64,000 nt of DNA from Thiocapsa rosea. GTDB lineage: Bacteria; Pseudomonadota; Gammaproteobacteria; Chromatiales; Chromatiaceae. The translations under genes were made by a program, and so were the position numbers. Each line of letters begins with the position of its first letter. Positions within the stretch are counted from its first letter, which is position 1. The notes beneath the pieces were generated by a model. It did not search any database, was not told where the DNA came from, and worked only from the letters and a program-made list of their open reading frames with translations. The stretch is taken from assembly GCF_003634315.1 (NCBI RefSeq), contig NZ_RBXL01000001.1, positions 1,844,501-1,908,500 on the forward strand. Direction: 5' to 3'. Shown here piece after piece: positions 6,169-49,036 of this stretch.

Positions 6169-6254
6169 TAAACCGCACCCAGCGCGGCATGTGATGTTTT
6201 TGGAAGGGATCGGCCCCGGCAGACTTGACGATTGTTGGAGCTGGTGCGGTTTAA
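6169..6254. repeat. Palindromic repeat, A-type copy 1
   Basis: About 85-bp element beginning TAAACCGCAC and ending GTGCGGTTTA (ends inverted and complementary). The interior matches the other A-type copies (GCGGCATGTGATGTTTTTGG, then GATCGGCCCCGGCAGACTTG). It directly abuts a second A copy. Confidence 0.85.
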
Positions 6255-6337
6255 ACCGCGCCCCACGCCGTATGCGATGTTTGTGGATGGGATCGGCTCC
6301 GGCAGTTTTGACGATCGCTGGAGACGGCGCGGTTTAA
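6252..6337. repeat. Palindromic repeat, A-type copy 2
   Basis: Second A-type copy, sharing its first bases with the end of copy 1 (GCGGTTTAAACCGCG). Ends TAAACCGCGCC / GGCGCGGTTTA... are near-perfect inverted repeats. It is followed by an AT-rich spacer (6338-6358) and then a B-type copy. Confidence 0.85.
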
Positions 6338-6358
6338 GAGATTAAAAAATATATGATC

Positions 6359-6444
6359 TTAAACCGCGTCCCCGCTAAGGGCCGTGGATGCACCAAACCT
6401 CGAACTCACTCGAAAGTGAGCATCTCGCTCTGGACGCGGTTTAA
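6359..6444. repeat. Palindromic repeat, B-type copy 1
   Basis: 86-bp B-type element with perfect 12-bp ends TAAACCGCGTCC / GGACGCGGTTTA and an internal hairpin CTCACTCGAAAGTGAG. A nearly identical copy lies at 43233-43318. Confidence 0.88.
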
Positions 6445-6545
6445 ATCTCCTCATCGGTATCCTTCTCCAGAGCGGAATGCGAAGCGCCCTGACCGGGAAT
6501 CCGCCGGATTCGACGACCGTCGCGTTGCATGCCTCGCAGGTATTC

Positions 6546-6632
6546 TAAACCGCGCCCGGTGCGGTATGCGTTGTTTGTTGGAATGGCTTGGCCGCGCCGG
6601 CTCCGACGACTGTCGGAGCCGGCGCGATTTAA
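6546..6632. repeat. Palindromic repeat, A-prime copy with long hairpin
   Basis: Begins TAAACCGCGCCCGGTGCGG and ends GGCGCGATTTA. It contains a perfect 15-bp hairpin (CGCGCCGGCTCCGAC / GTCGGAGCCGGCGCG, loop GACT). It is followed by a 21-bp AT-rich spacer and a B-prime copy. The whole pair recurs in inverse orientation at 39537-39729. Confidence 0.88.
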
Positions 6633-6653
6633 AATATTAATAAAGATTAAATT

Positions 6654-6739
6654 TTAAACCGCGTCGCGCCGAGATCGAGGAAGCCCCCGACGCTGAACAC
6701 AGCGTGAAAATGACGCATTTCGCTCTGGACGCGGTTTAG
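6654..6739. repeat. Palindromic repeat, B-prime copy
   Basis: Starts TTAAACCGCGTC and ends GACGCGGTTTAG. The interior (ATCGAGGAAGCCCCCGACGC...) matches the reverse complement of 39537-39622. It lies 85 bp before lhr. Confidence 0.85.
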
Positions 6740-12188: not shown

Positions 12189-13766
12189 ATGCGTTTCTTC
12201 AACACCGAAGGCCCGATCAAGCAAGACAAGCATTATTTCCTTCCGCCGCTGGAGCGGTGGGATCTGGCGCAGGTGCTTACGCTCATCGATCAGGAGAAAT
12301 ACTTCCTCCTGCATGCCCCTCGGCAGACCGGCAAGACGACCTGTCTGCTGGCGCTGATGGAGTATCTGAATCGGGAAGGGCGTTATCTGGCGCTCTACGC
12401 CAATATCGAGACGGCGCAGCCCGCGCGCGAGAATGTGGAATTGGCGATGACGGGCATCGTGCAGACGCTGGCGAACAGCGCACACTTCTGGCTCGGCGAC
12501 TCCGCGCCACAAGCTCTGGCGCGCGAGGTGCTCGCCGAGCAGTCGGCTACGGTCGCGCTGGGTCAGTTTCTCGCCCGCTGGTGCGCGCAGTCGCCGCGGC
12601 CGACCGTCCTGCTTCTGGACGAGGTGGATGCGCTGGTCGGCGACACGCTCATCTCGCTGCTGCGCCAGTTGCGTGCGGGCTATTCCCAGCGCCCCACGGG
12701 TTTTCCGCAGACCGTGATCCTCTGCGGGGTGCGGGATCTGCGCGACTATCGCATCCATTCCAGCTCCGAGGCGCCGATCACCGGCGGCAGTGCGTTCAAC
12801 ATCAACATCAAGGCCAAGTCGCTGCGCTTGGGCGATTTCAATGCCGCGGAGGTCAGGGCGCTGTTGCAGGAGCACACCGCCGAGACCGGCCAAGTCTTCG
12901 CGCCCGAGACATTGGATCGGGTGTGGACTCTGACCCAAGGCCAACCCTGGCTGGTCAACGCGCTGGCCTACGAGACCTGTTTCGAGATGCCCGAGGGCCG
13001 TGACCGCAGCCGCCCGATCGGGTTGGAGATGATCGAGCAGGCCAAGGAGAACCTTATCCTGCGCCGGGTCACGCATCTGGATCAGCTGGCCGACAAGCTG
13101 CGCGAGCCGCGTGTGCGCCGGGTCATCGAGCCGATGTTGGCCGGGACCGCCTTGGGCGAGGTGCCCGAGGACGACATCCAATACCTCATCGATCTCGGTC
13201 TCTGCCGGATGGCGCCGGGTCGGGGCCTGACGATCGCCAATCCGATTTACCGCGAGGTCCTGCCCCGAATTTTGACCTTCACACCTCAGGCGTCCCTGCC
13301 GCAGATCGCCCCGACCTGGCTGAATCCGGACGCCAGCCTGAACGCCGACCGTCTCCTGAGCGCCTTCCTGGTCTTCTGGCGCCAACACGGCCAACCTCTC
13401 TTGGGCAGCGCCGCCTACCATGAGATCGCCCCGCATCTGGTTCTCATGGCCTTTCTGCATCGCGTGGCCAACGGCGAGGGCACGTTGGAACGCGAATATG
13501 CAATCGGTTCAGGCCGGATGGATCTGTGCCTGCGTTACGGAGCGGTCACGCTCGGCATCGAGCTGAAGGTCTGGCGCGACGGTGCGCCCGATCCGTTGGC
13601 CGAGGGGTTGGTGCAGTTGGATGGGTATCTCGCCGGTCTCGGGCTCGACGCCGGCTGGCTCGTGATCTTCGACCGCCGCGCCGGCCAACCGCCGATCGCC
13701 GAGCGCACGGGCAGCGTCGAGACGCGCAGCCCGCAGGGCAGACACATCCGCGTGGTGCGGGCTTAA
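12189..13766 (+). CDS. AAA ATPase with PD-(D/E)XK nuclease-like C-terminus
   Basis: Cytoplasmic protein of 525 residues. The N-terminal P-loop ATPase has Walker A APRQTGKTT (residues 43-51) and Walker B TVLLLDEVDAL (about 139-149). The C-terminal part has GRMDLCLRYGAVTLGIELKVW (about 440-460), the D...ExK layout of a PD-(D/E)XK nuclease fold. Proteins of this build are common as single genes in purple sulfur bacteria and cyanobacteria; their role is not established, and defence or mobile-DNA functions are only a guess. The start at 12189 has GGAG about 8 nt upstream. Its stop codon TAA (13764-13766) lies inside the first bases of a palindromic repeat, and the convergent gene nifA ends in the partner repeat. 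Confidence 0.85.
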   Translation: MRFFNTEGPIKQDKHYFLPPLERWDLAQVLTLIDQEKYFLLHAPRQTGKTTCLLALMEYLNREGRYLALYANIETAQPARENVELAMTGIVQTLANSAHFWLGDSAPQALAREVLAEQSATVALGQFLARWCAQSPRPTVLLLDEVDALVGDTLISLLRQLRAGYSQRPTGFPQTVILCGVRDLRDYRIHSSSEAPITGGSAFNINIKAKSLRLGDFNAAEVRALLQEHTAETGQVFAPETLDRVWTLTQGQPWLVNALAYETCFEMPEGRDRSRPIGLEMIEQAKENLILRRVTHLDQLADKLREPRVRRVIEPMLAGTALGEVPEDDIQYLIDLGLCRMAPGRGLTIANPIYREVLPRILTFTPQASLPQIAPTWLNPDASLNADRLLSAFLVFWRQHGQPLLGSAAYHEIAPHLVLMAFLHRVANGEGTLEREYAIGSGRMDLCLRYGAVTLGIELKVWRDGAPDPLAEGLVQLDGYLAGLGLDAGWLVIFDRRAGQPPIAERTGSVETRSPQGRHIRVVRA

Positions 13767-13849
13767 ACCGCGCTCAGTGCGGTATGCGATGCTTCTGGAT
13801 GGGATCGGCCTCGGCAGACTTGACGATCGTTGGAGTTGGCGCGGTTTAA
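13763..13849. repeat. Palindromic repeat, A-type; supplies ATPase stop codon
   Basis: A-type copy with ends TTAAACCGCGC / GCGCGGTTTAA. The TAA at 13764-13766 is the stop of the upstream ATPase gene. A 21-bp AT-rich spacer (13850-13870) separates it from the B-type partner. Confidence 0.88.
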
Positions 13850-13870
13850 GATATTAAAAAATATAGTATT

Positions 13871-13952
13871 TTAAATCGCGTCTCCACAAAGGGATGTGGG
13901 TGCGGCAAACGTCGAACTCACTCGAAGATGAGCATCTCGCTCTGGACGCGGT

Positions 13953-13956
<4 letters not shown>
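13871..13956. repeat. Palindromic repeat, B-type; supplies nifA stop codon
   Basis: B-type copy with ends TTAAATCGCGTC / GGACGCGGTTTAA. The nifA stop (TAA, minus strand 13955-13953) lies in its terminal bases. Read on the minus strand, the hairpin is followed by ATATTTTTTAATA, so it could terminate nifA transcription. Confidence 0.88.
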
Positions 13957-15533
<1,577 letters not shown>

Positions 15534-23321: not shown

Positions 23322-23603
23322 ATGCATGTCGGAGTTGCCTACGCGGATAAGTTCAAGCAGACCTGGCTGAAGCTCGATGTCCCGGACGGAAGCACCGCGC
23401 GCGATGCGATCGAGCGCTCGGGCCTGCTCGACCAGTTTCCCGAGATCGATCTGGCGGAAAACAAGGTCGGCATCTTCGGGCGGTTGATCAAGCTCGAGAC
23501 CCGTCTGAGCGATGGTGATCGGGTGGAGATCTACCGGCCGATTACGGCCGACCCGGAGACCGTCGAGCGACGCGACCAGGTCGGCGAGGGCGATGCCGAC
23601 TAA
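23322..23603 (+). CDS. rnfH: RnfH family protein
   Basis: Small 93-residue protein with a ubiquitin-like beta-grasp fold in the RnfH family (VGVAYADKFKQTWLKLDVPDGSTARDAIERSG...VGIFGRL...GDRVEIYRPITADP). It is encoded at the end of rnf operons and needed for full Rnf function or assembly in Rhodobacter; the biochemical role is not settled. Its stop codon TAA (23601-23603) is also the first three bases of a perfect 23-bp palindrome that may end the operon transcript. Confidence 0.92.
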   Translation: MHVGVAYADKFKQTWLKLDVPDGSTARDAIERSGLLDQFPEIDLAENKVGIFGRLIKLETRLSDGDRVEIYRPITADPETVERRDQVGEGDAD

Positions 23604-23623
23604 ACCGCGCCCGGCGCGGTTTA
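23601..23623. repeat. Minimal palindrome (repeat ends only)
   Basis: TAAACCGCGCC, one C, then GGCGCGGTTTA: a perfect palindrome made only of the two ends of an A-type repeat with the 60-bp interior missing. It could be an excision scar or a terminator stem; it begins with the rnfH stop codon. Confidence 0.85.
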
Positions 23624-23734
23624 AACACTGATCGTGCAGGCGGCTCGAGGTGGCCCGTTTGATTCGGTATCCGCCTTCTCGTAGCATCGTGTGCAGGTTT
23701 CTTACCCCGTCCGCCGCCACCTTCGGCCGGCAGA

Positions 23735-33871: not shown

Positions 33872-34009
33872 GACAATCTCGTTTCTTGAGGTTGCGGGTC
33901 TTGGTTGTTGCGTGGATTTTCTTCCGGTCATGTGTTCGTCCTCTCTCGGCCGACAATTGGGGTTAGGTCGACGTATCCCTAATGCATCCAAAAACTACTG
34001 TTTTTTAAG

Positions 34010-34070
34010 TTAAACCGCGCCCGGTGCGGTATGCGATGTTTTTGGATGGGGTCGGCCCCGGCAGACTTGA
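34010..34070. repeat. Truncated A-type palindromic repeat
   Basis: Starts TTAAACCGCGCCCGGTGCGG and matches A-type copies for about 60 bp up to GGCAGACTTGA, then switches abruptly into a glycosyltransferase gene fragment. The right end is missing. Confidence 0.85.
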
Positions 34071-34150: not shown

Positions 34151-34177
34151 TCGGCATTCGGAAAGAAACCGTCGTTA

Positions 34178-35299: not shown

Positions 35300-35301
35300 G
35301 G

Positions 35302-37131: not shown

Positions 37132-37684
37132 CAGCGGATCCACCTCTGGTCTTGGTCTCGCGTCGCGATCGGCGGCATCGGATGGCTCAATGGGGCCTGA
37201 ATCATGGCCCGGGGGCAGGTGCGGGGTGCGATCTCCGCGGCGTGTCGAGGCATTGTCGACCGACTCGATCGACTATGACAAGCCGGGTGCGTCAGCGAGC
37301 CCGATACATTCTGTCCTCGGGTGCGGATTGATGGAGCGGTTGCACGATCATCCCGCCCGATCAGCAAAGAAATTGCAAGCACTGCACTTTGGCACTTTGC
37401 GGCACAATGTGCGGGGGCGCCTGAGGTGCTCGCCGATTCGTTTCTCGGGATATGCTGCCGGCGCAGTATCAGTGGACCCGGCAAAGCAGGACGCCGCAGT
37501 GCTGGCGTTCCGCGATGATGGCGACGACTTCCTGGGACGCCTGCTGGGTGCCGGCTTTGCGTCGGCTCAATTCCTGACCCCGGAACATCCCGTCCCTCGG
37601 GCTTCACCCGCTCGCTGGTGGTTGCCCGCAAGGCGGGGGCCTGGCGTGACTGATTCGTCCCTCTGAAAGCACAGATCCCAATCG
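37132..37684. other. Intergenic region between divergent asnB and CPBP genes
   Basis: 553 bp without a supported gene. It must contain both divergent promoters. A stretch 37485-37670 has an open, somewhat protein-like frame (AVLAFRDDGDDFLGRLLGAG...), but no homologue is recognised and no start is evident; it may be gene debris. No palindromic repeat of the local family is present here. Confidence 0.35.
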
Positions 37685-38560
37685 ATGCGCATTACCGCAC
37701 TCTTTTTCGCCTATCTCTTCGTCTGCCTCCTGCTGGGGGCGCTTCTGACCTATCCCGTGATGGCGACCGGCTGGCTCGACGAGGACCCGCAGCGGGTCAT
37801 GGGTCGGTTGGCGCAGATCTTCATCCTGCTTGGGCTCTGGCCCTTTCTCAAGCGCCTGCAACTCGCGGATCGGACCGCGTTGGGTTACGGCATTCCAAAG
37901 CCGGTCTTCCGACGTGCGCTCGCTCTAGGTTGGGTCGAAGGGGTGGCGATCCTCGCCGTGCTCGCGGCGATGCTCGTCGCGTTGGAGATTCGGCTGCCCG
38001 ACGCGGATCTGGAACTCTGGCCCTACCTGGCAAAGAAGGCACTCCAGGCCCTGATCGGCGGGCTCTTGATCGGGGTGCTCGAGGAGACCTTCTTCCGCGG
38101 TGCGCTCTACACGGCGATCCGTCGGCGCAACGGCGCGGCCTCGGCCGTGGTCTGGACCGCGTTTCTGTACATGCTGGTCCACTTCATGAAGCCGAGCGCC
38201 TTGCCGGAGGGTGTGCTTTTCGATTGGGCGGGCGCGTTGCAGATGTTCGGCGCCGTCTTCATCGACGTCTTTCAGTGGAAACATCTGAGCTCGATGGCGG
38301 CGCTCTTCATGGTCGGTGTCTTTCTGGCCCTGGTGCGCGAGCACACCGGCCACATTGCATGGGGCATCGGGTTGCACGCGGGCTGGGTCTTCGTGATTCA
38401 GGTGACGCGGCGGATGACCGACGGCAACCCCGAGGCCCCGGCCGCCTTTCTGGTCGGCAGCTACGACGGCGTCATCGGCTGGCTGGCTGCGGCATGGATC
38501 GGCCTGCTGGCGTTTCTGTTTTGGGGATGGACGCGCCGCTCGCGATCCGAGGGTGCGTGA
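37685..38560 (+). CDS. CPBP-family intramembrane protease
   Basis: 291-residue membrane protein with about eight hydrophobic helices in the CPBP (CAAX protease and bacteriocin-processing) family. The family's catalytic motif EExxxR is present as LEETFFRGALY near residue 137, and a later His in helix ends (FLYMLVHFMKP and HIAWGIGLHAGW) completes the metal-independent glutamic active site. Its substrate is unknown. It is convergent with the LytTR regulator downstream (33-bp gap). The start at 37685 directly precedes the first helix. Confidence 0.87.
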   Translation: MRITALFFAYLFVCLLLGALLTYPVMATGWLDEDPQRVMGRLAQIFILLGLWPFLKRLQLADRTALGYGIPKPVFRRALALGWVEGVAILAVLAAMLVALEIRLPDADLELWPYLAKKALQALIGGLLIGVLEETFFRGALYTAIRRRNGAASAVVWTAFLYMLVHFMKPSALPEGVLFDWAGALQMFGAVFIDVFQWKHLSSMAALFMVGVFLALVREHTGHIAWGIGLHAGWVFVIQVTRRMTDGNPEAPAAFLVGSYDGVIGWLAAAWIGLLAFLFWGWTRRSRSEGA

Positions 38561-38592
38561 GTCGAGTATGTGGGTCATGGGGCGGCAAGGGA

Positions 38593-39366
38593 TCAGCCGG
38601 GCATCCGCCGATCGGCATTGTCTCCCTGGACCCACCGGCGAACCTCGGGCAGGTGCCTGCGGCTCACCTGGAGCCGCTCCGCACAATCGCGCAGCCGGAT
38701 GTAGGCACCTCCGTCCGCGCTTTTCTCCAATCCGCAGACCTGCCCGCGCGCGACCAGCGCATTCCGGTGAATGCGCAGGAACATCTCGGTGAACTCCTGC
38801 TCCAAGACACGCAGCGACTCGTCGATCAAAAGCTCGCCATCGAGGTGACGCACCGTGACGTATTTGTGCTCGGCGCGCAGATAGATGACGTCCTCGATCT
38901 GCACGGTGCGCAGCCCGCCACGGTAATGGGCACTGATCTGGCGCCGGGGGGCGATTCGAGGTGGATCTGAATCGGGGGATCCGGCCCGCCCGACGCACTG
39001 AATCGACGTCGGATTCTGCACGCGCAACAGGGCCTCGAAGAGGCGCTCGCGACACACCGGCTTCACCAAATAACCGGCGAGTCGGTTTGCGAATGCAAAT
39101 ACGGTCTCGTGCTCGAAGGCCGTCACCAGGATGACCGCCGGGGCGGGGTCCAGCGCGGCCAGTGCTCGCGCCGCCTCCAGCCCGTTCATGCCGGGAATCT
39201 GCACATCCAGCAACACCAGATCGATCCGCTGCGACCTGCAGATCTCGATCGCCTGACGTCCGTCGGTCGCCTCGCCGGCCAGGGCGTACCGCCCGTCGGC
39301 GTCGGCCAGCAGCCTCCGAAGCCGTTCGCGTGCCTGTGCTTCATCGTCGACGACCAGGATGTTCAT
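38593..39366 (-). CDS. LytTR-family response regulator (AlgR-like)
   Basis: 257-residue response regulator. The receiver domain has the acidic pair VVDDE (Asp7-Asp8-Glu9), the phospho-acceptor Asp in LVLLDVQIPGMNG near residue 54, and Lys in YLVKPV. The C-terminal LytTR DNA-binding domain has VIYLRAEHKYVTVRHLDGELLIDESLRVLEQEF and FLRIHRNALVA. No histidine kinase gene is next to it. I start at the ATG at 39366; an ATG four codons upstream (39378) has no Shine-Dalgarno, whereas GGA within those codons can serve the second ATG. Confidence 0.9.
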   Translation of the reverse strand: MNILVVDDEAQARERLRRLLADADGRYALAGEATDGRQAIEICRSQRIDLVLLDVQIPGMNGLEAARALAALDPAPAVILVTAFEHETVFAFANRLAGYLVKPVCRERLFEALLRVQNPTSIQCVGRAGSPDSDPPRIAPRRQISAHYRGGLRTVQIEDVIYLRAEHKYVTVRHLDGELLIDESLRVLEQEFTEMFLRIHRNALVARGQVCGLEKSADGGAYIRLRDCAERLQVSRRHLPEVRRWVQGDNADRRMPG

Positions 39367-39536
39367 AACCTTTTCCATGGATCAGGTCTGGGCCGGGCTG
39401 ACAATGGTGCTTCGTCGGTCGAACGGAAAGTGTGCCCTGATGGGCATGCCAAGCCTGGCGAAGCGCATGTTCAGGCTGTCCTTCCACCGCCGCGGACTCT
39501 TCGCGTCAAAGATAGCTCACGATCATTTTACTCAGG

Positions 39537-39622
39537 TTAAACCGCGTCCAGAGCGACATGCGTAGTTTTCATGTTGTGTTCAGCGTCGGGGGCCTCCTCG
39601 ATCTTGCCGAGACGCGGTTTAA
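39537..39622. repeat. Palindromic repeat, B-prime type (inverted copy)
   Basis: Reverse complement of the element at 6654-6739 with few differences. Followed by a 20-bp AT-rich spacer and the inverted A-prime copy. Confidence 0.87.
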
Positions 39623-39642
39623 AATTTAATTTTATTAATAAC

Positions 39643-39729
39643 TTAAACCGCGCCGGCTCCGGCAGTCGTCGGAGCCGGCGCGGCCAAGCCATTCCAACGA
39701 ATTACGCATACCGCACCGGGCGCGGTTTA
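39643..39729. repeat. Palindromic repeat, A-prime type (inverted copy)
   Basis: Reverse complement of 6546-6632, including the 15-bp internal hairpin CGCCGGCTCCGGCAGTCGTC... The right end lies 34 bp before argH. Confidence 0.87.
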
Positions 39730-39763
39730 GAATCCTCGGATCGCACCACTTCGGATCCCGCAG

Positions 39764-41179
39764 ATGCACCAGCCAAGCCCTTCCGCCAAACCCTGGGCCG
39801 GGCGCTTCAACGCGCCCACCGACGCCTTCGTCGAGGCATTCACCGCCTCGGTCGACTTCGACCGCCGCCTCTATCGCTACGACATCCGGGGCTCGATCGC
39901 CCACGCCACGATGCTGGCCCGTCAAGGCATCCTCAGCGATGCAGAGCGCGACGCCATCGTCTCCGGACTGGAGAGCGTGCGGGAGCGGATCGATGCCGGC
40001 GCCTTCGAGTGGTCGATCCCGCTCGAGGATGTCCATATGAACGTGGAGTCCGCCCTGACCGAGCTGATCGGCGATGCCGGCAAAAAGCTGCACACAGGGC
40101 GCTCGCGCAACGATCAGGTCGCGACCGATGTGCGGCTGTGGTTGCGCGACGAGATCGATCTGATCCGCAAGGCCATCGCACGCCTTCAAGCCGCCTTGCT
40201 GGATCTCGCCGAGCGCGAGGCCGAGACCATCATGCCCGGCTTCACCCACCTGCAGGTCGCCCAACCCGTCACCTTCGGCCATCACATGCTGGCCTGGTTC
40301 GAGATGCTGGATCGCGATCGCGAGCGCCTGGCCGATTGTCGGCGGCGCATGAACGTGATGCCGCTCGGGGCCGCCGCGCTGGCCGGCACCACCTATCCGA
40401 TCGATCGGGCCTACACAGCGGAGCTGCTCGGTTTCGATCGGCCGGCGGAGAATTCGCTCGATGCCGTCTCGGACCGCGATTTCGCGATCGAATTCACGGC
40501 GGGCGCGGCCATCCTCATGATGCACCTGTCGCGCTTCTCCGAAGAGCTGATCCTCTGGTCGTCGAGTCAGTTCGGCTTCATCGAGCTCTCCGACAGCTTC
40601 TGCACCGGCTCCTCGATCATGCCGCAGAAGAAGAACCCGGACGTGCCCGAGCTGGTGCGCGGCAAGAGCGGGCGCATCTTCGGTCATCTGATGGGCCTCT
40701 TGACCCTGATGAAGGCCCAGCCCCTGGCTTACAACAAGGACAACCAAGAGGACAAGGAGCCGCTGTTCGACACGGTCGATAATCTGAAGGGCTCGCTCAA
40801 GGTCTATGCCGAGATGATGCGCGAGGTCACCTGCAATCGTGAGCGGATGCGTTCCGCCGCCGCGCAAGGCTTCAGCACCGCCACCGATCTCGCGGATTAT
40901 CTGGTGCGCAAAGGCATCGCTTTCCGCGATGCGCACGAGATCGTCGGCAAGGCGGTCGGGCTCGGTGTGCGCGAAGGTCGGGATCTTGCCGAGCTGACGT
41001 TGGAGGAGCTGCGCGGATTCTCGGACGCGATTCAGGCCGATGTCTTTGCCGTGCTGACGCTGGATGGCTCGGTTGCCGCACGTGATCACCTCGGCGGCAC
41101 GGCCCCGGCCCAAGTGCGCGCTGCGATCGTCAGGGCACGTGGGCGCTTGGCCGATGTGGGCACAAGCGATGCCGGATAG
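39764..41179 (+). CDS. argH: Argininosuccinate lyase
   Basis: Last enzyme of arginine synthesis: argininosuccinate to arginine and fumarate; 471 residues, the usual length. The superfamily signature [12 protein letters not shown] is intact (with the catalytic Ser in the flexible loop), as are [13 protein letters not shown] and TVGHH-like [11 protein letters not shown] carrying the conserved His. It overlaps the following MazG-like gene by 11 nt. argE lies 2 kb downstream on the other strand. Confidence 0.97.
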
Positions 41180-41552
41180 CCTTGATCAGCTCAACGCCCG
41201 TCTACTCGCCTTCGCCCGCGAGCGCGACTGGGAGCAGTTCCACTCGCCCAAGAACCTCGCTATGGCCTTGGCGGGTGAGGCCGGCGAGCTGCTCGAGCAC
41301 TTCCAATGGCTCACCGAGCAACAGAGTGCCGAGCTGAGTGCCGAGAAGAAACGGCAGGTCGCACACGAACTCGCCGACATCCTCAACTATCTGGTCCGCC
41401 TGGCCGAGCGGCTGGACATCGACCTGCTGGCCGCTGCCGACGAGAAGATCGCCATCAACGCGGCGCGTTATCCGGCCGACAAGGTACGCGGGGACGCGCG
41501 TCGGGCGAGCGAGTATGGAGACGAGGATGGAAGACGGGACGGTTCTGTGTGA
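41169..41552 (+). CDS. MazG-like nucleotide pyrophosphohydrolase
   Basis: 127-residue all-alpha NTP pyrophosphohydrolase of the MazG/dCTPase (XTP3TPA-like) group. Active-site residues: [11 protein letters not shown] gives the ExxE pair, and [19 protein letters not shown] gives the ExxD motif that binds Mg2+. It probably removes non-canonical or excess dNTPs. It starts within the last codons of argH (ATG at 41169), so it is coupled to it. Confidence 0.88.
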
Positions 41553-41811
41553 TGGCGCGTTTGAAACTGAGCGTCTGCTGTTGCCGGATGATGTACGGGA
41601 GGAGTTGCTGGCGCACGCTAAACTCCTCCAGCGCTGCGGGCCTAGCCCCCGTCGGCCTGCGGTCGAGACGCGCAAGGGGTCACGCTACGCGAAGTTTCGA
41701 GCTTCCGCGCGTTGCGCGACCCTAGATCCATGGCGCGACGCGAGCATGCTTCCCACTGTCTGTCCTTTCAGCGAGGCGGAGCTGTTGGATGACGACTATT
41801 GGCCGGAATAG
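41527..41811 (+). CDS. Small open frame of unknown function
   Basis: Possible 94-residue protein beginning [34 protein letters not shown], with an acidic end SEAELLDDDYWPE. GAGACGAGG precedes the ATG. It overlaps the MazG-like gene by 26 nt and the next gene by 23 nt. The middle part (LQRCGPSPRRPAVETRKGSRYAK) has a low-information look and may be an intergenic sequence read by chance. No family is recognised. Confidence 0.3.
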   Translation: MEDGTVLCDGAFETERLLLPDDVREELLAHAKLLQRCGPSPRRPAVETRKGSRYAKFRASARCATLDPWRDASMLPTVCPFSEAELLDDDYWPE

Positions 41812-42517
41812 CGACAAGGCAATCGGGTTCGACAAGACCAACAGACGTACCGCTCATGCCCCGGAGGAGGGACAAGGATGGCGCCGCGACGCGATCGCCC
41901 TGACGCCTTGGGGCCCGCCCCTGCTGAGTACGGTCTTGGAAGCCCGAAATCAGGCGCGCACGACGGAGGTCGCGGCCCTGGAGGCGGCGCTGACCCTCGA
42001 TTGGCTGCTCGATCCCATCGCGGCTTTCGAGGATTGGAGCCGCTCCATCCGTTCCGTGTTGCCGGAATGGCAAAAGGATTTGGATCCCCCGGAAGCAGAC
42101 GTTCAGCCGGGAGCGCACCAGTTCAAGGTATCGCTCGGGGCGCGCTGCTGGCGCCGGATCCGCTGCGGGGTCGAGACCAGCTTCGCCGTGCTGGCCTCGA
42201 CGATTCTCGACGCCTTCGATTTCGATCACGACCATCTCTATCGCTTCAGCTACCAGAACCGTTATGGCCAGATGATCGAAATCGACCACTTCGCTCTGGT
42301 GGGAGAGACGGACAACGCGGTGGCCGACGAGGTGCTTATCGGCGATCTCTCTCTGTCCGAGGGTCAGCGCATCGAGTTCCTGTTCGGCCTCGGCGACGCT
42401 TGGACATTCGGGATCCTTGTCGAGCGCCCCGAGGCCGGGCCCGTCCGCCCGGCACCGCTCATCCTGGAAAGCTATGGCGAGGCACCGGCGCAATACGGGG
42501 ATGAATGGGACGACTAA
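41789..42517 (+). CDS. pRiA4b ORF-3-like protein
   Basis: 242-residue cytoplasmic protein. Residues about 110-240 match the plasmid pRiA4b ORF-3 (IS1096 passenger-like) domain: HQFKVSLGARCWRRIRCGVETSFAVLASTILDAFDFDHDHLYRF, then IEFLFGLGDAWTFGILVER and the ending LILESYGEAPAQYGDEWDD. The first 110 residues are not recognised and may be partly artefact, but no later ATG precedes the domain. The family is common on plasmids and genomic islands; function unknown. Its stop is 2 bp before a partial palindromic repeat. Confidence 0.75.
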   Translation: MTTIGRNSDKAIGFDKTNRRTAHAPEEGQGWRRDAIALTPWGPPLLSTVLEARNQARTTEVAALEAALTLDWLLDPIAAFEDWSRSIRSVLPEWQKDLDPPEADVQPGAHQFKVSLGARCWRRIRCGVETSFAVLASTILDAFDFDHDHLYRFSYQNRYGQMIEIDHFALVGETDNAVADEVLIGDLSLSEGQRIEFLFGLGDAWTFGILVERPEAGPVRPAPLILESYGEAPAQYGDEWDD

Positions 42518-42519
42518 CC

Positions 42520-42550
42520 TAAACCGCAGCCAGTGCGACACGCGCATTCT
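42520..42550. repeat. Partial palindromic repeat (left end only)
   Basis: TAAACCGCAGCCAGTGCGAC resembles the first third of an A-type copy; no matching right end follows. Confidence 0.5.
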
Positions 42551-42585
42551 ATACTTTCTCGGACGTCTTCCAATCGGTATCCGCC

Positions 42586-43179
42586 ATGCCTCTCCTCCAA
42601 CCCGATCATCGGCACTACACCTACGCGGACTATTCGACCTGGCCCGATGACGTGCGCTATGAGCTGATCGACGGCGTTGCATTCCTGATATCGCCCGCAC
42701 CGACGCTCGATCATCAGGATGTGGTCGGCGAGATCTACTACCAGCTTCGGCAGGCACTCGGGGACCAACCCTGCCGCGCCTACGTCTCCCCGGTGGACGT
42801 GCGGGTTCCCCGCACCGACGAGGACGACGCGGACATCGACACCGTCGTTCAGCCGGACGTGCTGGTGATCTGCGATCGCGAGAAGACCGACCGTCGCGGG
42901 GTGCGCGGCGGTCCGGATTTCGTCGTGGAAGTGCTCTCGCCCGGCACCGCGAGCCATGACCATGTGCGCAAGCGCCGGGTCTACGAGCGCGCCGGCGTGC
43001 GTGAATACTGGTTGGTCCATCCGATCGACCGCACCCTCACCACCTACCGGTTGGAGCAGGGCCGGTTCGGCGGGGCCGAGGTGACGGAGCTGGCGGGTGA
43101 GACCCCGGTCGGCATCCTCCCGGGCGTGGTGATCGCTTGGGATGCACTGGTCGAGCGTCTTGCACCGCCGGAGGACTGA
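42586..43179 (+). CDS. Uma2-family (DUF820) putative endonuclease
   Basis: 197-residue protein of the Uma2 family, a restriction-endonuclease-like (PD-(D/E)XK) fold. Signatures: YTYADYSTWPDDVRYELIDGVAFLI, DTVVQPDVLVICD (catalytic Asp), FVVEVLSPGTASHD (ExL/ExV) and RKRRVYERAGVREYWLVHP. These proteins are numerous in cyanobacteria, Chloroflexi and purple sulfur bacteria; no cellular role is demonstrated. The promoter region contains part of a palindromic repeat. Confidence 0.88.
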   Translation: MPLLQPDHRHYTYADYSTWPDDVRYELIDGVAFLISPAPTLDHQDVVGEIYYQLRQALGDQPCRAYVSPVDVRVPRTDEDDADIDTVVQPDVLVICDREKTDRRGVRGGPDFVVEVLSPGTASHDHVRKRRVYERAGVREYWLVHPIDRTLTTYRLEQGRFGGAEVTELAGETPVGILPGVVIAWDALVERLAPPED

Positions 43180-43232
43180 CCGGCACCGCGGCCGGTCCCG
43201 GCGCAAGGACCTCGGGCCGGCAATCATCGGTG

Positions 43233-43318
43233 TTGAACCGCGTCCCCGCTAAGGGCCGTGGATGCACCAAACGCCGAACTCACTCGAAAGTGAGCATCTC
43301 GCTCTGGGCGCGGTTTAA
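43233..43318. repeat. Palindromic repeat, B-type; supplies argE stop codon
   Basis: Nearly identical to 6359-6444 with the hairpin CTCACTCGAAAGTGAG. The argE stop (TAA on the minus strand, 43317-43315) lies in its right end. Confidence 0.88.
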
Positions 43319-44469
43319 CGTAGACAGAAACGCTGGATCAAGGCCCGCAACAGGTCGAGCGTCGGTCTGATCCGATCCAGCTCAAGATACTCGTCCGGTT
43401 GATGGGCTTGAGCGATATCACCCGGCCCGAGCACGATCGTCTCCATCCCGAGCTGGTTGAGGAAGGGCGCCTCGGTGCCGAAATTCACGGCCTCGGCGGT
43501 GTGGCCGGTCAGTCCTTCGGCCACGCGCACGATTGCCGAGCCGGCGGGTGTCTCGGCCGGCGGGATGGCCTCGAACAGGGGCTCGACGAACCAGGCTAGG
43601 CCGCGTCGGTCGGCGACGGTCGCGACCCGGCGGCTGAGCTCGGCGCGCACGTCGGTCGCACTCAGGCCGGGCAGCAGACGCATGTCGACATGCAGCTCGC
43701 ATTCCCCGCAGATCCGATTCGGGTTGTCGCCGCCGTGGATGTGGCCGAGGTTCAGCGTTGGATGCGGGATCTTGAAGTCCGGGTGTCGATGGCTGTCGGC
43801 GAGCTCGGAGCGCCAGGCCATCAGGGCGCCCATGACCTCGTACATGCCGTCCAAGGCGTTGTTGCCGAGGGCCGGGTCGCTCGCATGGCCGCTGCGGCCG
43901 ACCAATCGAATCGATTCGCCCATCACGCCTTTGTGCAGGCGCACCGGCCGCAGGCCGGTCGGCTCGCCGATCACCGCATAGCGCCCGAGCGGCCGTCCGG
44001 CCTCGACCAGGGCGCGTGCGCCGTGCATCGCGGACTCCTCGTCCGCGGTCGCCAGGATCATCAGAGGCTGCGCGAGATCGGTCGCGGTCAAGCCGCGTGC
44101 GGCCTCGATCGCCAGCGCCAGGAAGGACTTCATGTCCGAGGTGCCGAGCCCGTAGAGGCGCCCCTGGGCTTCGGTCAGCTTGAGTGGGTCGTGGGTCCAG
44201 AGATGGGCATCGAACGGAACCGTATCGGTATGTCCCGACAGCACCAGACCGCCGGGGCCGCTGCCGAGCGTGGCCAGCAGATTGGCCTTGTCCGGTTGTC
44301 CGGGAAGCGCGAGGATCTCGACCCGGAAGCCGGCCGACTCCAACCAGGAGGCCAACAGATCGATCACCGCCCGGTTGCTGTGATCGAAGGCGGGCGTGAC
44401 GCTGCTGACCGACAGGGTGCCGATCAGGCCTTCGAGCATGGTGGTCAGGGTCGGGGCCTGGCTGGGCAT
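43315..44469 (-). CDS. argE: Acetylornithine deacetylase
   Basis: M20-family zinc peptidase, 384 residues, converting N-acetylornithine to ornithine. Metal ligands: HTDTVPFD (His and Asp), GTSDMKSF (bridging Asp), TADEESAMHGA (Glu pair, general base and ligand), GEPTGLRP and the late His in GPGDIAQAHQPDEYL. The dimerisation domain lies between about 180 and 290. The ATG at 44469 has GGAG 6 nt upstream. It is divergent from the GNAT-peptidase gene, and its stop is inside a palindromic repeat. Without a search, a succinyl-diaminopimelate desuccinylase cannot be wholly excluded, but residues and length favour ArgE. Confidence 0.9.
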   Translation of the reverse strand: MPSQAPTLTTMLEGLIGTLSVSSVTPAFDHSNRAVIDLLASWLESAGFRVEILALPGQPDKANLLATLGSGPGGLVLSGHTDTVPFDAHLWTHDPLKLTEAQGRLYGLGTSDMKSFLALAIEAARGLTATDLAQPLMILATADEESAMHGARALVEAGRPLGRYAVIGEPTGLRPVRLHKGVMGESIRLVGRSGHASDPALGNNALDGMYEVMGALMAWRSELADSHRHPDFKIPHPTLNLGHIHGGDNPNRICGECELHVDMRLLPGLSATDVRAELSRRVATVADRRGLAWFVEPLFEAIPPAETPAGSAIVRVAEGLTGHTAEAVNFGTEAPFLNQLGMETIVLGPGDIAQAHQPDEYLELDRIRPTLDLLRALIQRFCLR

Positions 44470-44644
44470 GGCGTGCTCCGCTGTATTGAGACTGAGGCTC
44501 GGGTCCGCCGCCCGAGGAGGATGTTGATTCGATCCGATGGCGCCGGCCTCGGACGCCTTGCATTTTCCTGCGTGACCTGTAGATTTCGCCGACTCTATCC
44601 CGCCTTTCCGGCTCCTGCCAGTCCCCGCGCCGATACCGAGCTCA

Positions 44645-45778
44645 GTGCCCACCCATTCGCCCAGCGACATCGCTCACCCGCCCCCGCGCCTGCGCCCTGC
44701 TGCGCTTGCGGATATGGGTGCCCTTCTTCGACTCGAGGGTGCGAGCTTCCAGAGTGACCGGCTGACCCGTCGCCAGTTCCGCTACATGCTGACCCGTGCG
44801 CAGGCGCGCACGCTGGTCGCCGAGGATGCCGAGGGTGCCTTGCTGGGGTACGTCATGGTGCTCTTCAGCCGGGCCACCTCGGTCGCGCGGCTCTATTCGA
44901 TCGCGGTCGCGGCACAGACGCGTGGCCGAGGGGTCGGCCGCGCCCTCGTCAACGCGGCGGAGGAGGCGGCCTGGGAGCAGGAGCGCGCCTACATGCGCCT
45001 TGAGATCCGGCGCGACAATCTTGCCTCGCAGGCGCTGTTCGAGAACGCGGGTTATCGGCGCTTCGGCGTACTCTCGGACTATTACGAAGACCACATGGAG
45101 GCGCTGCGCTACGAGAAGACACTCTCTCCAGGTCTCAAGCCTGAGCTCACGCGCGTGCCCTTTTACGAGCAGACCCTCGATTTCACCTGCGGCTCGTCGT
45201 CGCTGATGATGGCGATGCAGGCGCTGCGCCCGAGTCTCGAGCTCAATCGAACCTTGGAGCTGCGGATCTGGCGCGAGTCCACCACCATCTTCATGACCTC
45301 CGGGCACGGGGGCTGCGGGCCCCTGGGTCTGGCGCTGTCCGCGCAGGCCCGCGGCTTCGCCGTGGAGGTCTTCGTGAACGATCCGGGCGTGCCGCTGGTC
45401 GACTCGGTGCGCAGCCCGGAGAAGAAGGAGGTCATGCGCCTCGTCCACGAGGACATGCTGGCCGAGGCGCAGCGCTTGGGCATCCCGGTCCACCAGGGCA
45501 CGCTCAGCGTCGACGATCTCCAGCAACGCTGGGACGCGGGCTCGGTGCCCCTGGTGTTGATCAGTTCCTACCGCATCTACCGCGAGAAATTCCCGCATTG
45601 GGTCGTGATCACCGGCTTCGACGAGCACTTCATCTATGTCCACGACCCCTACGTCGACTATGCCAACGGAGAGACCACGCTGGACTCGATCGATATGCCG
45701 ATTCGCCGCGACGAGTTCAGCCGGATGGCCCGGTATGGTCGGGTTGGGTTGCAAGCGGTGGTCCTCGTCTCCTGCTGA
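44645..45778 (+). CDS. GNAT acetyltransferase-C39 peptidase fusion
   Basis: 377-residue two-domain protein. Residues 1-155 are a RimI-like GNAT acetyltransferase (acetyl-CoA loop QTRGRGVGRAL at 91-101, ENAGYRRFGVL). Residues 165-377 form a C39-like cysteine peptidase domain: DFTCGSSSLMMAM carries the nucleophile Cys182, HWVVITGF the His near 318 and HDPYVDY the Asp near 337. It precedes a RimK-family ATP-grasp ligase on the same strand, a pairing seen in many proteobacteria and thought to be a peptide-modifying system; the substrate is unknown. The start is GTG at 44645. Its stop TGA lies inside the end of a palindromic repeat. Confidence 0.88.
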   Translation: MPTHSPSDIAHPPPRLRPAALADMGALLRLEGASFQSDRLTRRQFRYMLTRAQARTLVAEDAEGALLGYVMVLFSRATSVARLYSIAVAAQTRGRGVGRALVNAAEEAAWEQERAYMRLEIRRDNLASQALFENAGYRRFGVLSDYYEDHMEALRYEKTLSPGLKPELTRVPFYEQTLDFTCGSSSLMMAMQALRPSLELNRTLELRIWRESTTIFMTSGHGGCGPLGLALSAQARGFAVEVFVNDPGVPLVDSVRSPEKKEVMRLVHEDMLAEAQRLGIPVHQGTLSVDDLQQRWDAGSVPLVLISSYRIYREKFPHWVVITGFDEHFIYVHDPYVDYANGETTLDSIDMPIRRDEFSRMARYGRVGLQAVVLVSC

Positions 45779-45861
45779 ATCGCGTCAGGCGCGACATGCA
45801 TCGTTCACGTATGGATCGGAACGACCCGGCAGCGACCACCGTCGTCACTGACGCGATTCAG
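45775..45861. repeat. Palindromic repeat variant; contains a stop codon
   Basis: Perfect 14-bp ends CTGAATCGCGTCAG / CTGACGCGATTCAG, different in sequence from the A and B copies but equally symmetric. The TGA at 45776-45778 ends the GNAT-C39 gene. It is followed by a T-rich spacer (GATTTTTATTTTTTATGC), so it looks like a terminator on the plus strand. Confidence 0.85.
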
Positions 45862-45879
45862 GATTTTTATTTTTTATGC

Positions 45880-45973
45880 TTTAAATCGCGCCTGTGCCGA
45901 GGCGCGTTGGTATGGATCAACCCGGAATCAAAATGCAACGCGACATAGACCCCACGAACGAGCGCGATTTAAA
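45880..45973. repeat. Palindromic repeat variant abutting the rimK-like start
   Basis: Perfect 12-bp ends TTTAAATCGCGC / GCGCGATTTAAA. The final A is the first base of the ATG of the RimK-family gene. Confidence 0.85.
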
Positions 45974-47454
45974 TGGCTGAGCATTTGTTGTTGGTGGAGC
46001 AGCAAGGCGACTGGAAGCCGGGTTTTCCGCGTCTGCCCGTCGTGACCGCGCGCGACTATCTCGCGGGCGGCGAGCTGGCGTCCAAGCGCGACCTGCGCGT
46101 GATCAACCTGTGCCGCAGCTATCGCTATCTCTCGGTGGGCTATTATTGCTCCCTGCTTGCCGAGGCGCGCGGGCACAAGGTCATCCCGAGCGTTCGGACC
46201 ATCCAGGAGCTCTCCAGCCGCGAGCTCTACAGCCTGGCCACCGAAGAGCTCGACGGGCTGGTGCAGCGTCTGCTCGGGCGTCGCAAGACCTCGGCACTTG
46301 CCCCGACCGCCTACGAGCTGACCATCTGTTTCGGCCAGTGCGACGTGAAGGAGCTGCAGCCGCTCGCGCGCGAGATCTTCGAGACCTTCCGCTGCCCGAT
46401 CCTGCGCGTGGAGTTTCGCCGCCAAGGCACCTGGCGCATCGGGGCCATCAAGGCCCTGCCGCTGGCCGCCGTCACGGCGGACGGGGAGGGGCCTTTGTTT
46501 GCGGCGCTGGAGGGTTATCTCTCGCAGCGTTGGCGCCAGCCGCGCGCCCGCCTGTCCTATCGCTACGACCTCGCCGTGCTGCACGACCCGGCCGAGGAGT
46601 TGCCGCCCTCCGACGGCAAGGCCCTGCAACGCTTCGTGAAGGCCGGCAAGTCGCTCGGCGTCAACGTCGAGCTGATCCAGCGCAAGGACTACAGCCGGCT
46701 TGCCGAGTACGACGCCCTGTTCATCCGCGAGACCACGCGTATCGGTCACCATACCTTCCGCTTCGCCAAGAAGGCCGACAGCGAGGGCATGGTCGTGATC
46801 GACGACCCGGACTCCATCCTGCGCTGCACCAACAAGGTCTATCTCGCCGAGCTGCTCGCGGCGCATCGCATCCCGCGGCCCAAGACACTGGTGCTGCGCA
46901 AGGAGAATCTGATGGAGGCCGAGCAGCTGATCGGCTATCCGATCGTGCTCAAGATCCCGGAGGGGTCCTTCTCGCGCGGCGTCTTCCGGGCGGAGGATCG
47001 CGCCGGGTTGACGCGGATCGCCGGCAAGCTTTTTAAAGAGTCCGATCTCATCCTGGCGCAGGAGTATCTCTACACGGCCTTCGACTGGCGTATCGGCATC
47101 CTGGGTCGCCAGCCCTTCTATGCCTGCAAATATCTGATGAGCCGCGATCATTGGCAGATCGTCAAGCACGAGACCGACGGTCGTCACGAGCAGGGCGGGT
47201 TCGAGACCCTGCCGGTCGAGGCGGTCCCGCCTGCCGTGATGAAGACGGCGCTCAAGGCGGCCGACCTGATCGGCGACGGGCTCTACGGGGTCGATCTCAA
47301 AGAGACCTCGGCCGGGCCGGTCGTGATCGAGGTCAACGACAACCCGAGCCTGGACGCGGGGGTCGAGGACCTGGTGCTCGGCGACCAGCTTTATGCCCGC
47401 TTGATCGGCGAATTCGTGGCACGACTCGACCGCCGGCGCTCCGGCAAACGCTGA
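45973..47454 (+). CDS. RimK-family ATP-grasp ligase
   Basis: 493-residue protein with an N-terminal RimK-like N-domain (about 40-190: DLRVINLCRSYRYLSVGYYCSLLAEARGH) and a C-terminal ATP-grasp domain (about 285-490): DDPDSILRCTNKVYLAELLAAHRIPRPKT, YPIVLKIPEGSFSRGVFR, ILAQEYLYTAFDWRIGIL, and the Mg-binding VIEVNDNPSLDAGVED. The family forms amide bonds between a carboxylate and an amino group. With the GNAT-C39 protein upstream it forms a conserved gene pair. No Shine-Dalgarno is visible, because the palindromic repeat extends to the start codon; an internal GTG or leader-dependent initiation is possible. Confidence 0.9.
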   Translation: MAEHLLLVEQQGDWKPGFPRLPVVTARDYLAGGELASKRDLRVINLCRSYRYLSVGYYCSLLAEARGHKVIPSVRTIQELSSRELYSLATEELDGLVQRLLGRRKTSALAPTAYELTICFGQCDVKELQPLAREIFETFRCPILRVEFRRQGTWRIGAIKALPLAAVTADGEGPLFAALEGYLSQRWRQPRARLSYRYDLAVLHDPAEELPPSDGKALQRFVKAGKSLGVNVELIQRKDYSRLAEYDALFIRETTRIGHHTFRFAKKADSEGMVVIDDPDSILRCTNKVYLAELLAAHRIPRPKTLVLRKENLMEAEQLIGYPIVLKIPEGSFSRGVFRAEDRAGLTRIAGKLFKESDLILAQEYLYTAFDWRIGILGRQPFYACKYLMSRDHWQIVKHETDGRHEQGGFETLPVEAVPPAVMKTALKAADLIGDGLYGVDLKETSAGPVVIEVNDNPSLDAGVEDLVLGDQLYARLIGEFVARLDRRRSGKR

Positions 47455-47464
47455 CTGGAATACG

Positions 47465-48949
47465 ATGACTCTATCCACTGAAACGCCCCCGCAGCGCGTG
47501 CGTCTCTCGCGCTCGCAGGCGACCGCGCTCATTACACCCGAACAGATCGCCGCCTCGCCCTTGGCCCGTTATCGCACCCTGGTCGACGATTGGGACGCCT
47601 TCGCCGCGGCGCTCGGTCGGCCGCTGCCGCCCTGCATCTGGGCCAACCCGACGCGGATCTCGGTCGCCGAATTGGCGGACCTGCTGGCCGAGCAGGGTTT
47701 GGATGCGCAACCGGTGCCCGGCCTGCCCGCTGCCTTGCGACTCCCCGAGGAGACCAAGGCGGGCCGCAACTGGTGGTACTGCGCCGGCTTGGCCCACGCA
47801 CAAGAGGAGGTCTCGCAACTGCCCGCGATGTTGATGGACCTGGCACCCGGTCAGCGGGTGTTGGATCTTTGCGCCGCACCCGGCGGCAAGACCGCGCAGA
47901 TCGCCTTCGCCCTGGGCAATCGCGGGACGCTCGTCGCCAACGACATCGCTCACGCGCGGATCAAGGCGCTCCAAGGCAATCTCGACCGGCTCGGCGTGGT
48001 CAACGTCACCACGACCTGTAGCGACGGCGCCAACTGGCCGAGTGCGAGCGGTCAGTTCGACCGCATTCTGGTCGACGCACCCTGCTCGAGCGAGGGCACG
48101 CTGCGGCGTACGCCGTCCTTGCTGCCCCGGCTCGATCCGGACAGCGGGCTTCGCTTGGGACCGCGCCAGCGGGCATTGCTGCGCAAGGCGGTACAGCGCT
48201 GTCGCCCGGGCGGGCGCATCCTCTATTCCACCTGCACCTTCGCCCCGGAGGAGAACGAGCTGGTGGTGGCCGACATCCTCGCCGAGCATCCGGGAATGCT
48301 GCGCCTGGTCCCGGCAGCGGTTCCGGGTTTCGTCGCGATGCCGGGCGTCACCCATTGGAACGGACGGGAGCTTCCGCCCGAGCTGGCGCACTGTCTGAGG
48401 ATCTGGCCCCATCATCGCGACACCGGCGGCTTTTTTATGGCGATCTTGGAGAAGGATGCCGGCTGCCCCGCCGAGCCGACGCCTGAGCCGGCGCATCTGG
48501 ACGACACGGATTCCGTCGAATGGCTCGCCGGTCTCAACGACAAATACGGCCTGAGCGGCGATTACTGGACCGGTTACCGCGCCAACCGCCAGACTCGACG
48601 TGGGTTGCACCTGATGGCCGCCGACCATGCGCCGCCCGCGGTGCCGTTGGCCGAGTCGAGCGGTTTGTTCTTCCACCGCACCAATGTGCGACCGCCCAAG
48701 CCCAGCACCGGCGGTGCGTTGCTCTTCGGGCGCGATATCACGCGCTTCGGTGTCTCGTTGAATACCCAGCAGCGCGATCGTTACCTGCGCCGTGAGACCT
48801 TCGACCCGACACCCGAGCAGCGAGCCGCGACGCCGACGGGACAGATCATCCTGAGCTATCGTGGTCATGTGCTGGGTGTGGGTGTGCTGCATCGCTCCGG
48901 GGTGATCGAGAGTTTGTTTCCGAGCCGTTGGAGCGGCTGCGCTGCTTAA
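47465..48949 (+). CDS. RsmB/RsmF-type rRNA cytosine-C5 methyltransferase
   Basis: 494-residue SAM-dependent m5C RNA methyltransferase of the NOL1/NOP2/Sun group. Motif I LDLCAAPGGKTAQIA, motif IV DAPCSSEG (Cys near 209) and motif VI YSTCTFAPEENE (catalytic Cys near 255) are intact. The C-terminal 170 residues form the extra domain of RsmF-like enzymes, so it probably acts on 16S rRNA; the exact position is not deducible. It follows the RimK-like gene by 10 bp. The stop TAA is inside a palindromic repeat. Confidence 0.9.
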   Translation: MTLSTETPPQRVRLSRSQATALITPEQIAASPLARYRTLVDDWDAFAAALGRPLPPCIWANPTRISVAELADLLAEQGLDAQPVPGLPAALRLPEETKAGRNWWYCAGLAHAQEEVSQLPAMLMDLAPGQRVLDLCAAPGGKTAQIAFALGNRGTLVANDIAHARIKALQGNLDRLGVVNVTTTCSDGANWPSASGQFDRILVDAPCSSEGTLRRTPSLLPRLDPDSGLRLGPRQRALLRKAVQRCRPGGRILYSTCTFAPEENELVVADILAEHPGMLRLVPAAVPGFVAMPGVTHWNGRELPPELAHCLRIWPHHRDTGGFFMAILEKDAGCPAEPTPEPAHLDDTDSVEWLAGLNDKYGLSGDYWTGYRANRQTRRGLHLMAADHAPPAVPLAESSGLFFHRTNVRPPKPSTGGALLFGRDITRFGVSLNTQQRDRYLRRETFDPTPEQRAATPTGQIILSYRGHVLGVGVLHRSGVIESLFPSRWSGCAA

Positions 48950-49036
48950 AACGCGCCCCGCGATGGTTCATGCGATGTTTTGGTGTGGGTCACGCTTGAC
49001 CCCTGTCCGCTCGGTTTGGAGCAGACGCGTTTTAAG
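48945..49036. repeat. Palindromic repeat variant; contains a stop codon
   Basis: 92-bp copy with ends CTTAAAACGCG / CGCGTTTTAAG. TAA at 48947-48949 ends the methyltransferase gene. The interior keeps the TGCGATGTTTTGG segment of A-type copies. Confidence 0.82.

What the first reader, a model, noticed from the sequence alone, without database searches (positions are those of the whole stretch)
6169..49036. Family of about 16 palindromic repeats with compensatory changes in their ends
Copies at 6169, 6252, 6359, 6546, 6654, 13763, 13871, 23601, 34010, 39537, 39643, 42520, 43233, 45775, 45880 and 48945 are mostly 85-92 bp and flanked by inverted ends of 11-14 bp. The ends differ between copies (TAAACCGCGCC, TAAACCGCGTCC, TTTAAATCGCGC, CTGAATCGCGTCAG, CTTAAAACGCG), yet within a copy left and right ends stay complementary. 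Such paired change suggests selection for the hairpin itself (RNA terminator, mRNA 3' stabiliser or protein site) or frequent end correction, rather than passive decay of a transposon. I do not recognise this family.
Basis: seen in the sequence. Interest (0 to 1): 0.75.

Follow-up and report, generated by a model that had tools for sequence, protein, structure and literature searches.

The report
Stop-codon hairpin repeats in purple bacteria
A purple sulfur bacterium and its relatives carry many copies of a small mobile DNA hairpin that often lands in gene stop signals without destroying them, and whose two ends tend to stay matched to each other as they evolve.

Summary
13 of the 16 listed copies are complete hairpin units of 84-94 bp; 23601 is a 25-bp mini-palindrome, 34010 and 42520 are left ends only. 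The genome (genus of Thiocapsa) has 589 copies with perfect ends (reversed-pattern control 0). Empty sites in relatives show insertion at a 2-bp, TA-like target. In 75 of 199 gene 3' ends facing an element (five genomes), its first triplet is the stop codon. Paired end changes are real: 84 within-unit end mismatches against 165 after shuffling, and at one orthologous site (window 45775) 4 of 12 pairs covary across 8 genomes with every cell paired. Stems diverge about 5 times more slowly than interiors (8/252 against 133/788). RNA function is not shown: stem mismatches are G.U on the sense strand 17 times, A.C 14 times; T-runs follow only 8 of 188 outer ends. Best reading: an undescribed TA-type palindromic miniature element (MITE), a new variant of a known kind, whose hairpin is under constraint after insertion. 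No transposase was found.

The parts
6169..6253 (.). hairpin unit, ends TAAACCGCACC/GGTGCGGTTTA (both ends share the G-to-A change)
6252..6444 (+). doublet: unit A 6252-6337, AT-rich spacer, unit B 6359-6444
   Evidence: no element here in 4 of 4 relatives
6546..6739 (+). doublet: units 6546-6632 and 6654-6739; the orthologous site in 4 of 4 relatives is a bare TA in ..TATTC-TA-GTCC..
13763..13957 (+). doublet: units 13763-13849 and 13871-13956; full in G125 and G129, A absent in G117, B absent in G147, an insertion in the spacer in G105; called stop codons at both outer ends
23601..23625 (.). 25-bp mini-palindrome TAAACCGCGCCCGGCGCGGTTTAAA; bare TAAA in G117
34010..34070 (+). truncated unit, left end and part of the interior only (right limit approximate)
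39537..39731 (-). doublet in the opposite orientation: units 39538-39622 and 39643-39730
42520..42555 (+). decayed left end; G125 has a full doublet here, G075 has none
43233..43318 (+). single B-type unit; its right end is the stop codon of the - strand gene 43315-44670 (peptidase M20)
45775..45861 (+). first unit of a diverged doublet, ends CTGAATCGCGTC/GACGCGATTCAG; bases 45776-45778 are the TGA stop of the GNAT/DUF3335 gene
45880..45973 (+). second unit of that doublet, ends TTTAAATCGCGC/GCGCGATTTAAA; its right end touches the ATG at 45973 of the RimK-like gene
48945..49036 (+). single unit, ends CTTAAAACGCG/CGCGTTTTAAG; TAA stop of the RsmF-like gene at 48947-48949; recognisable at the same place in G075 (one end mismatch), G079 and G125

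Best explanation
A non-autonomous palindromic mobile element (MITE). The form that moves is usually a 193-bp doublet: two ~86-bp hairpins, A and B, head to head around an AT-rich spacer of about 23 bp, each with 9-12 bp terminal stems TAAACCGCG..CGCGGTTTA. It inserts at TA-like dinucleotides (shown by empty sites; strict TA not shown), often the TA of a stop codon. Because the element itself begins TAA, the host gene keeps its stop and its full protein (position shown; tolerance by selection inferred). Unidentified transposition proteins supplied in trans probably recognise the paired end and its CGCG core (inferred). After insertion, recombination between the repeated ends trims some doublets to single units (A alone and B alone seen at one locus; mechanism inferred). 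The stems are then held by purifying selection while interiors drift, and paired substitutions change the outer bases but keep the CGCG core (shown at one locus and across paralogues). I think the surviving old copies act as hairpins between a stop codon and the next gene or at the mRNA 3' end; whether the DNA or the RNA hairpin matters is not settled.
For: Copy number, doublet form, spacing mode 23. Empty sites: 11 tight comparisons out of 190 clusters tested, 9 with a 2-bp remainder; looser flanks, 22 comparisons with at most 12 bp left, 12 of them 2 bp; 6546-6739 empty in 4 of 4 relatives; own 1684457 empty in G117, G147 and G129, filled by three differently composed doublets in this genome, G079 and G105. 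Stop codon: 75 of 199 facing 3' ends over five genomes, 33 of 93 in this one (orthologous copies counted more than once); in the first gene set 32 of 92 versus 90 of 675 intergenic YTAR sites, p 2e-6. Stem versus interior divergence against G117, loci inside called genes dropped: 11 loci, 8/252 versus 133/788, ratio CI 0.05-0.39; before the drop 13 loci, 9/288 versus 152/913; reciprocal 8/270 versus 142/843. Covariation at 45775: 8 genomes, 96 of 96 cells paired, 4 of 12 pairs changed on both sides, 0 of 500 shuffles reach the covariation score. Matched-variant ends in 8 of 17 old clusters and 1 of 16 young, p 0.017.
Against: The 2-bp remainder is TA in only 3 of 9 tight cases (GA 2, TG 2, AA 1, TC 1) and 4 of 12 loose ones, so a TA duplication is not proven; 30 further comparisons had other lengths and stay unresolved. 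No transposase found: 7 DDE_3 and 9 Y1 loci lack these ends close by, and the 10 pairs of unpaired ends 400-4000 bp apart in 2.57 Mb enclose ordinary genes or no Pfam match (10 frames scanned). In-place two-sided change in the comparison lies at one locus only (45775), and at own 1925417 G125 and G117 have unpaired stem bases. One of five measures (further pair types, 5 versus 6.2 shuffled) did not exceed the shuffles, and that control ignores relatedness. Stop-codon placement is equal in old (6/17) and young (6/16) copies, so it reflects insertion or early filtering, not later benefit. Choosing near-consensus ends lowers apparent stem divergence; even half the interior rate is rejected (p 6e-4), but that p ignores linkage within loci. 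Against G125 the ratio is not clearly below 1 (3 loci, CI 0.22-1.31).
Confidence: 0.62

Rival explanations
1. The stems are matched mainly by mutation, not selection: template switching during replication copies one arm onto the other, homogenising the inverted ends.
For: Gives matched changes without function; such homogenisation of arms is reported (PMC8794818 and PMC8604942, abstract starts seen in the listing). At 45775 several nearby pairs changed together.
Against: Neutral correction should not slow the stem, yet stems diverge about 5 times less than interiors. One-sided changes outnumber two-sided ones over short times: 8 versus 0 in this genome against G117.
Confidence: 0.18
2. An RNA device: intrinsic terminator, attenuator or mRNA 3' stabiliser selected on the transcribed strand.
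For: Stop codon at the hairpin base in 75 of 199 facing 3' ends; some diverged copies are followed by T-runs, as at 45775; outer ends with a T-run of 5 or more in 16 nt are 8/188 versus 23/4000 intergenic positions.
Against: Only 4% have such a run. Stem mismatches in co-directional contexts are G.U on the sense strand 17 times, A.C 14 times, other 19; G.U versus A.C p 0.72. Terminator-like sites in window 34000-50000 are 9 versus 7.2 in shuffles; one overlaps the 42520 remnant and one lies inside the 45880 unit. No Rfam family at gathering score but a tRNA.
Confidence: 0.25
3. A REPIN moved by a REP-associated tyrosine transposase (RAYT).
For: Inverted ends, hairpin doublets, hundreds of copies; compensatory changes are stated to be common in REPINs (PMC3116915, passages). 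RAYT-family hits at E 0.001 in 18 of 18 repeat-bearing genomes of the draw.
Against: RAYT hits are also in 112 of the 129 genomes without the repeat pattern (130 of 147 in all, 93 over the curated cut-off). Of 9 PF01797 loci of this genome, one (L212) has a paired unit, about 1.3 kb from the hit, and two (L216, L217) a lone end; NF047646 gives 13 hits here, so some were not examined. The 86-bp units lack the short self-palindromic 16-mer REP.
Confidence: 0.15
4. Passive decay of an ordinary transposon family with no constraint on copies in place.
For: Truncated copies at 34010 and 42520; many one-sided mismatches.
Against: Stem conservation and covariation at orthologous loci.
Confidence: 0.06

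Closest known systems
TA-flanked bacterial MITEs: ERIC/RU-1, RUP, Correia/NEMIS (properties from PMC2229807 passages)
   Same: Under 200 bp, no protein, terminal inverted repeats, 5'-TA-3' at the termini, stable stem-loops
   Different: Doublet of two separate hairpins; stop codon often formed by the element; covariation at an orthologous locus; no partner insertion sequence found, unlike RUP with IS630-Spn1. Sequences were not compared
REPINs (PMC3116915 passages)
   Same: Inverted ends with a variable spacer forming a hairpin; doublets over-represented; compensatory changes on both sides
   Different: No short self-palindromic REP; TA-like dinucleotide at the insertion point; no RAYT link found
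CIR elements of Caulobacter/Brucella (PMC2229807 passages)
   Same: Two stem-loop arms joined by a linker
   Different: No terminal inverted repeats listed for CIR; CIR has a GANTC motif; sequences not compared here

Membership tests
MITE (TA-type) | terminal inverted repeats on a short non-coding element | tested here: met
   86-bp units and 193-bp doublets with 9-12 bp inverted ends; 589 perfect matches, control 0
MITE (TA-type) | insertion with target duplication (TA) | tested here: inconclusive
   2-bp remainder in 9 of 11 tight empty-site comparisons; TA in 3 of 9
MITE (TA-type) | autonomous relative with the same ends | tested here: inconclusive
   none at 7 DDE_3 and 9 Y1 loci nor between 10 pairs of unpaired ends in 2.57 Mb; the whole genome was not scanned for it
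REPIN | RAYT gene flanked by the repeat | tested here: inconclusive
   9 Y1 loci examined, one with a unit about 1.3 kb away; 13 RAYT-family hits in this genome
REPIN | two inverted REPs, each with a short palindromic core | tested here: not met
   ends TAAACCGCG are not self-palindromes beyond CGCG
Intrinsic terminator | GC-rich hairpin directly followed by a T-run | tested here: not met
   T-run at 8 of 188 outer ends; scan near chance; a few copies may still qualify
Described RNA family (Rfam) | covariance-model match | tested here: not met
   only a tRNA in the window at gathering scores
ERIC / RUP / Correia / CIR by sequence | sequence similarity to the named family | not tested
   no reference sequences were compared

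The most novel reading that the evidence does not exclude
A mobile element that provides its own stop codon, so it can enter gene ends harmlessly, and whose old doublets have become a conserved two-hairpin module filling the gap from one gene's stop to the next gene's ATG (window 45775-45973, own 1925417 and 1931866), uncoupling or processing neighbouring genes of an operon, with selection on the hairpin rather than its sequence.
Probability: 0.25. Interest if true: 0.7.

Novelty: new variant of a known kind. Interest (0 to 1): 0.5.

Why it matters
Units cover about 2% of the sampled 624 kb, and no paper describing the family turned up in searches (open-licence PMC papers only). The element shows how a mobile sequence can use stop codons as safe landing sites. 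With many copies of known age class in several sequenced relatives, it makes one open question testable: do matched hairpin arms persist by selection, or by replication copying one arm onto the other?

Tried and rejected
RNA terminator: rejected as the general function. RNA-strand selection: the G.U/A.C test showed no asymmetry. Autonomous partner: none seen at the DDE_3 or Y1 loci; the 10 pairs of unpaired ends 400-4000 bp apart enclose ordinary genes (TraB, MlaA, YicC, BCCT and others) or frames without a Pfam match (10 of the longer frames were scanned). RAYT co-distribution: uninformative, RAYTs are nearly everywhere. Pairing across a doublet instead of within units: within-unit mismatches 27 and 28 over 92 doublets, between-unit 48 to 57, so units pair within themselves. 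A Galliscardovia hit (L081) shows no right end in the 140 bases read and has lower G+C; taken as chance. Window 26173-26269 (own 1870673) passed the unit filter but is probably a chance inverted repeat in a gene; it is in the counts. It and four other clusters inside called genes were dropped in the recount, two or three of which have perfect ends and may be real. Missteps: one search printed nothing and was rerun; one search used wrong coordinates and is not used; one search was meant for own 1664481 but took 1684000-1684500, which proved useful.
Full report
What is there. The 16 positions were read directly. Thirteen are complete inverted-end units of 84-94 bp, one is a 25-bp mini-palindrome (23601), and two are left ends only (34010, 42520). 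The window lies in a 6.1 Mb genome (G000:C1:1844501-1908500). The pattern TAAACCGCGN{60,85}CGCGGTTTA has 589 perfect matches there and none when read backwards. In a contiguous 624-kb sample 150 units pass my filter, in 94 clusters (48 doublets, 42 singles, 4 triples), with the gap between units peaking at 23 bp; without clusters inside called genes, 145 units in 89 clusters. Scaling by perfect ends gives about 1,100 units in the genome. The doublet is unit A, an AT-rich spacer, then unit B.

Where it occurs. An exact degenerate end pattern is found in 18 of 147 genomes of the order, in 8 of 48 genera, and in all 9 genus members of that draw at very different counts, from 1 to 421. The species of the window's own genome was not established.

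It is mobile. Syntenic relatives lack many copies. At window 6546-6739 all 4 relatives have a bare TA where this genome has the doublet. With strict flanks 11 comparisons qualified out of 190 clusters tested: 9 leave 2 bp, one 1 bp, one 8 bp; the 2 bp are TA 3, GA 2, TG 2, AA 1, TC 1. With looser flanks (94 clusters of this genome) 22 comparisons leave at most 12 bp, 12 of them 2 bp (TA 4), 27 have an ortholog, 1 other sequence and 30 other lengths. So a 2-bp target is well supported and TA is favoured but not proven. At own 1684457 one site is empty in G117, G147 and G129, holds doublets of different composition in this genome, G079 and G105, and a different inverted-repeat element in G125. 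At window 13763 one unit is missing in G117 and the other in G147, so doublets can lose a unit. Young clusters are mostly doublets (13 of 16), old ones less often (7 of 17; p 0.03).

Stop codons. With a simple codon-usage gene caller, 32 of 92 gene 3' ends facing an element have their stop codon exactly at the element's first three bases; between -40 and +15 no other offset has more than 3, and 38 are farther. Intergenic YTAR sites, those at element ends included, are stop codons in 90 of 675 cases. A second calling over five genomes gives 75 of 199 (33 of 93 in this genome). The share is alike in old (6/17) and young (6/16) clusters, so it arises at insertion or soon after. Of 56 element ends with a gene reading away, 40 have a downstream in-frame ATG within 90 nt and 8 have it within 2 nt, including window 45973, own 1925417 and own 1931866.

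Paired ends. In five genomes, 262 units near the consensus show 84 within-unit end mismatches; shuffled partners give 165, minimum 150. At window 45775 the first unit is present in 8 genomes with outer bases TGAATC, TAAATC, TAGACC, TAAACC or TAAGCC; every right end matches at these bases, and the first triplet is a stop codon word in each. In G117 a further TAGACCGCG end lies just outside the unit, so unit replacement may contribute there. The pair count gives 96 of 96 cells paired, 4 of 12 pairs changed on both sides, covariation score 0.265 against 0.142 in shuffles, none of 500 as high; slid structures pair 29-39% of cells; further pair types (5) did not exceed the shuffles (6.2). At own 1931866 both units' 9-bp stems are identical in 8 genomes while interiors vary. 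At own 1925417 two of the five genomes readable across the site have broken stem pairs, so pairing can be lost.

Selection or correction. Against G117, with loci inside called genes dropped, stem positions 1-9 differ at 8 of 252 sites over 11 loci and interiors at 133 of 788, ratio CI 0.05-0.39. Before the drop it was 9 of 288 and 152 of 913 over 13 loci, with 15-nt flanks at 37 of 388; the reciprocal comparison agrees. Against G075 it is 10/180 and 118/569 (6 loci); against G125 the ratio is not clearly below 1 (3 loci, CI 0.22-1.31). Slow stems argue for purifying selection, not correction alone. The strand test is negative: in co-directional contexts 17 mismatches are G.U on the sense strand, 14 are A.C and 19 other. 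So the hairpin matters, but whether as RNA or as DNA is open.

Comparison. TA termini, inverted repeats, size and stem-loops match bacterial MITEs reviewed in PMC2229807 (passages); compensatory change is also reported for REPINs (PMC3116915, passages). The preference of IS630 for CTAG with TA duplication is recalled, not looked up. No insertion sequence or RAYT carrying these ends was found in what I examined. Searches showed no description of this family; I saw listings, and passages of four papers.

Noticed in passing
L383 (G125), site orthologous to own 1684457: A different element of about 242 bp with inverted ends TAAACCTAGATCCGGCAGTTGA..TCAACTGCCGGATCTAGGTTAA sits at the same TA that other species fill with the doublet: a shared insertion hot spot.
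   Followed up: no
L231 (G105), in the doublet orthologous to window 13763-13957: An insertion of about 1.1 kb lies in the AT-rich spacer with an apparent 8-bp duplication TATTATTT; an IS1595-like element from recall only.
   Followed up: no
window 20626-20691: Two tandem 33-bp repeats, 97% alike, in a long open frame.
   Followed up: no
L354 (G117) and L356 (G129), own 1925417 site: About 170 extra bases lie between the two units in these genomes.
   Followed up: no
window 39537-39731: Relative to G075 this doublet replaces about 100 bp of intergenic sequence, hinting at a deletion beside the insertion.
   Followed up: partly
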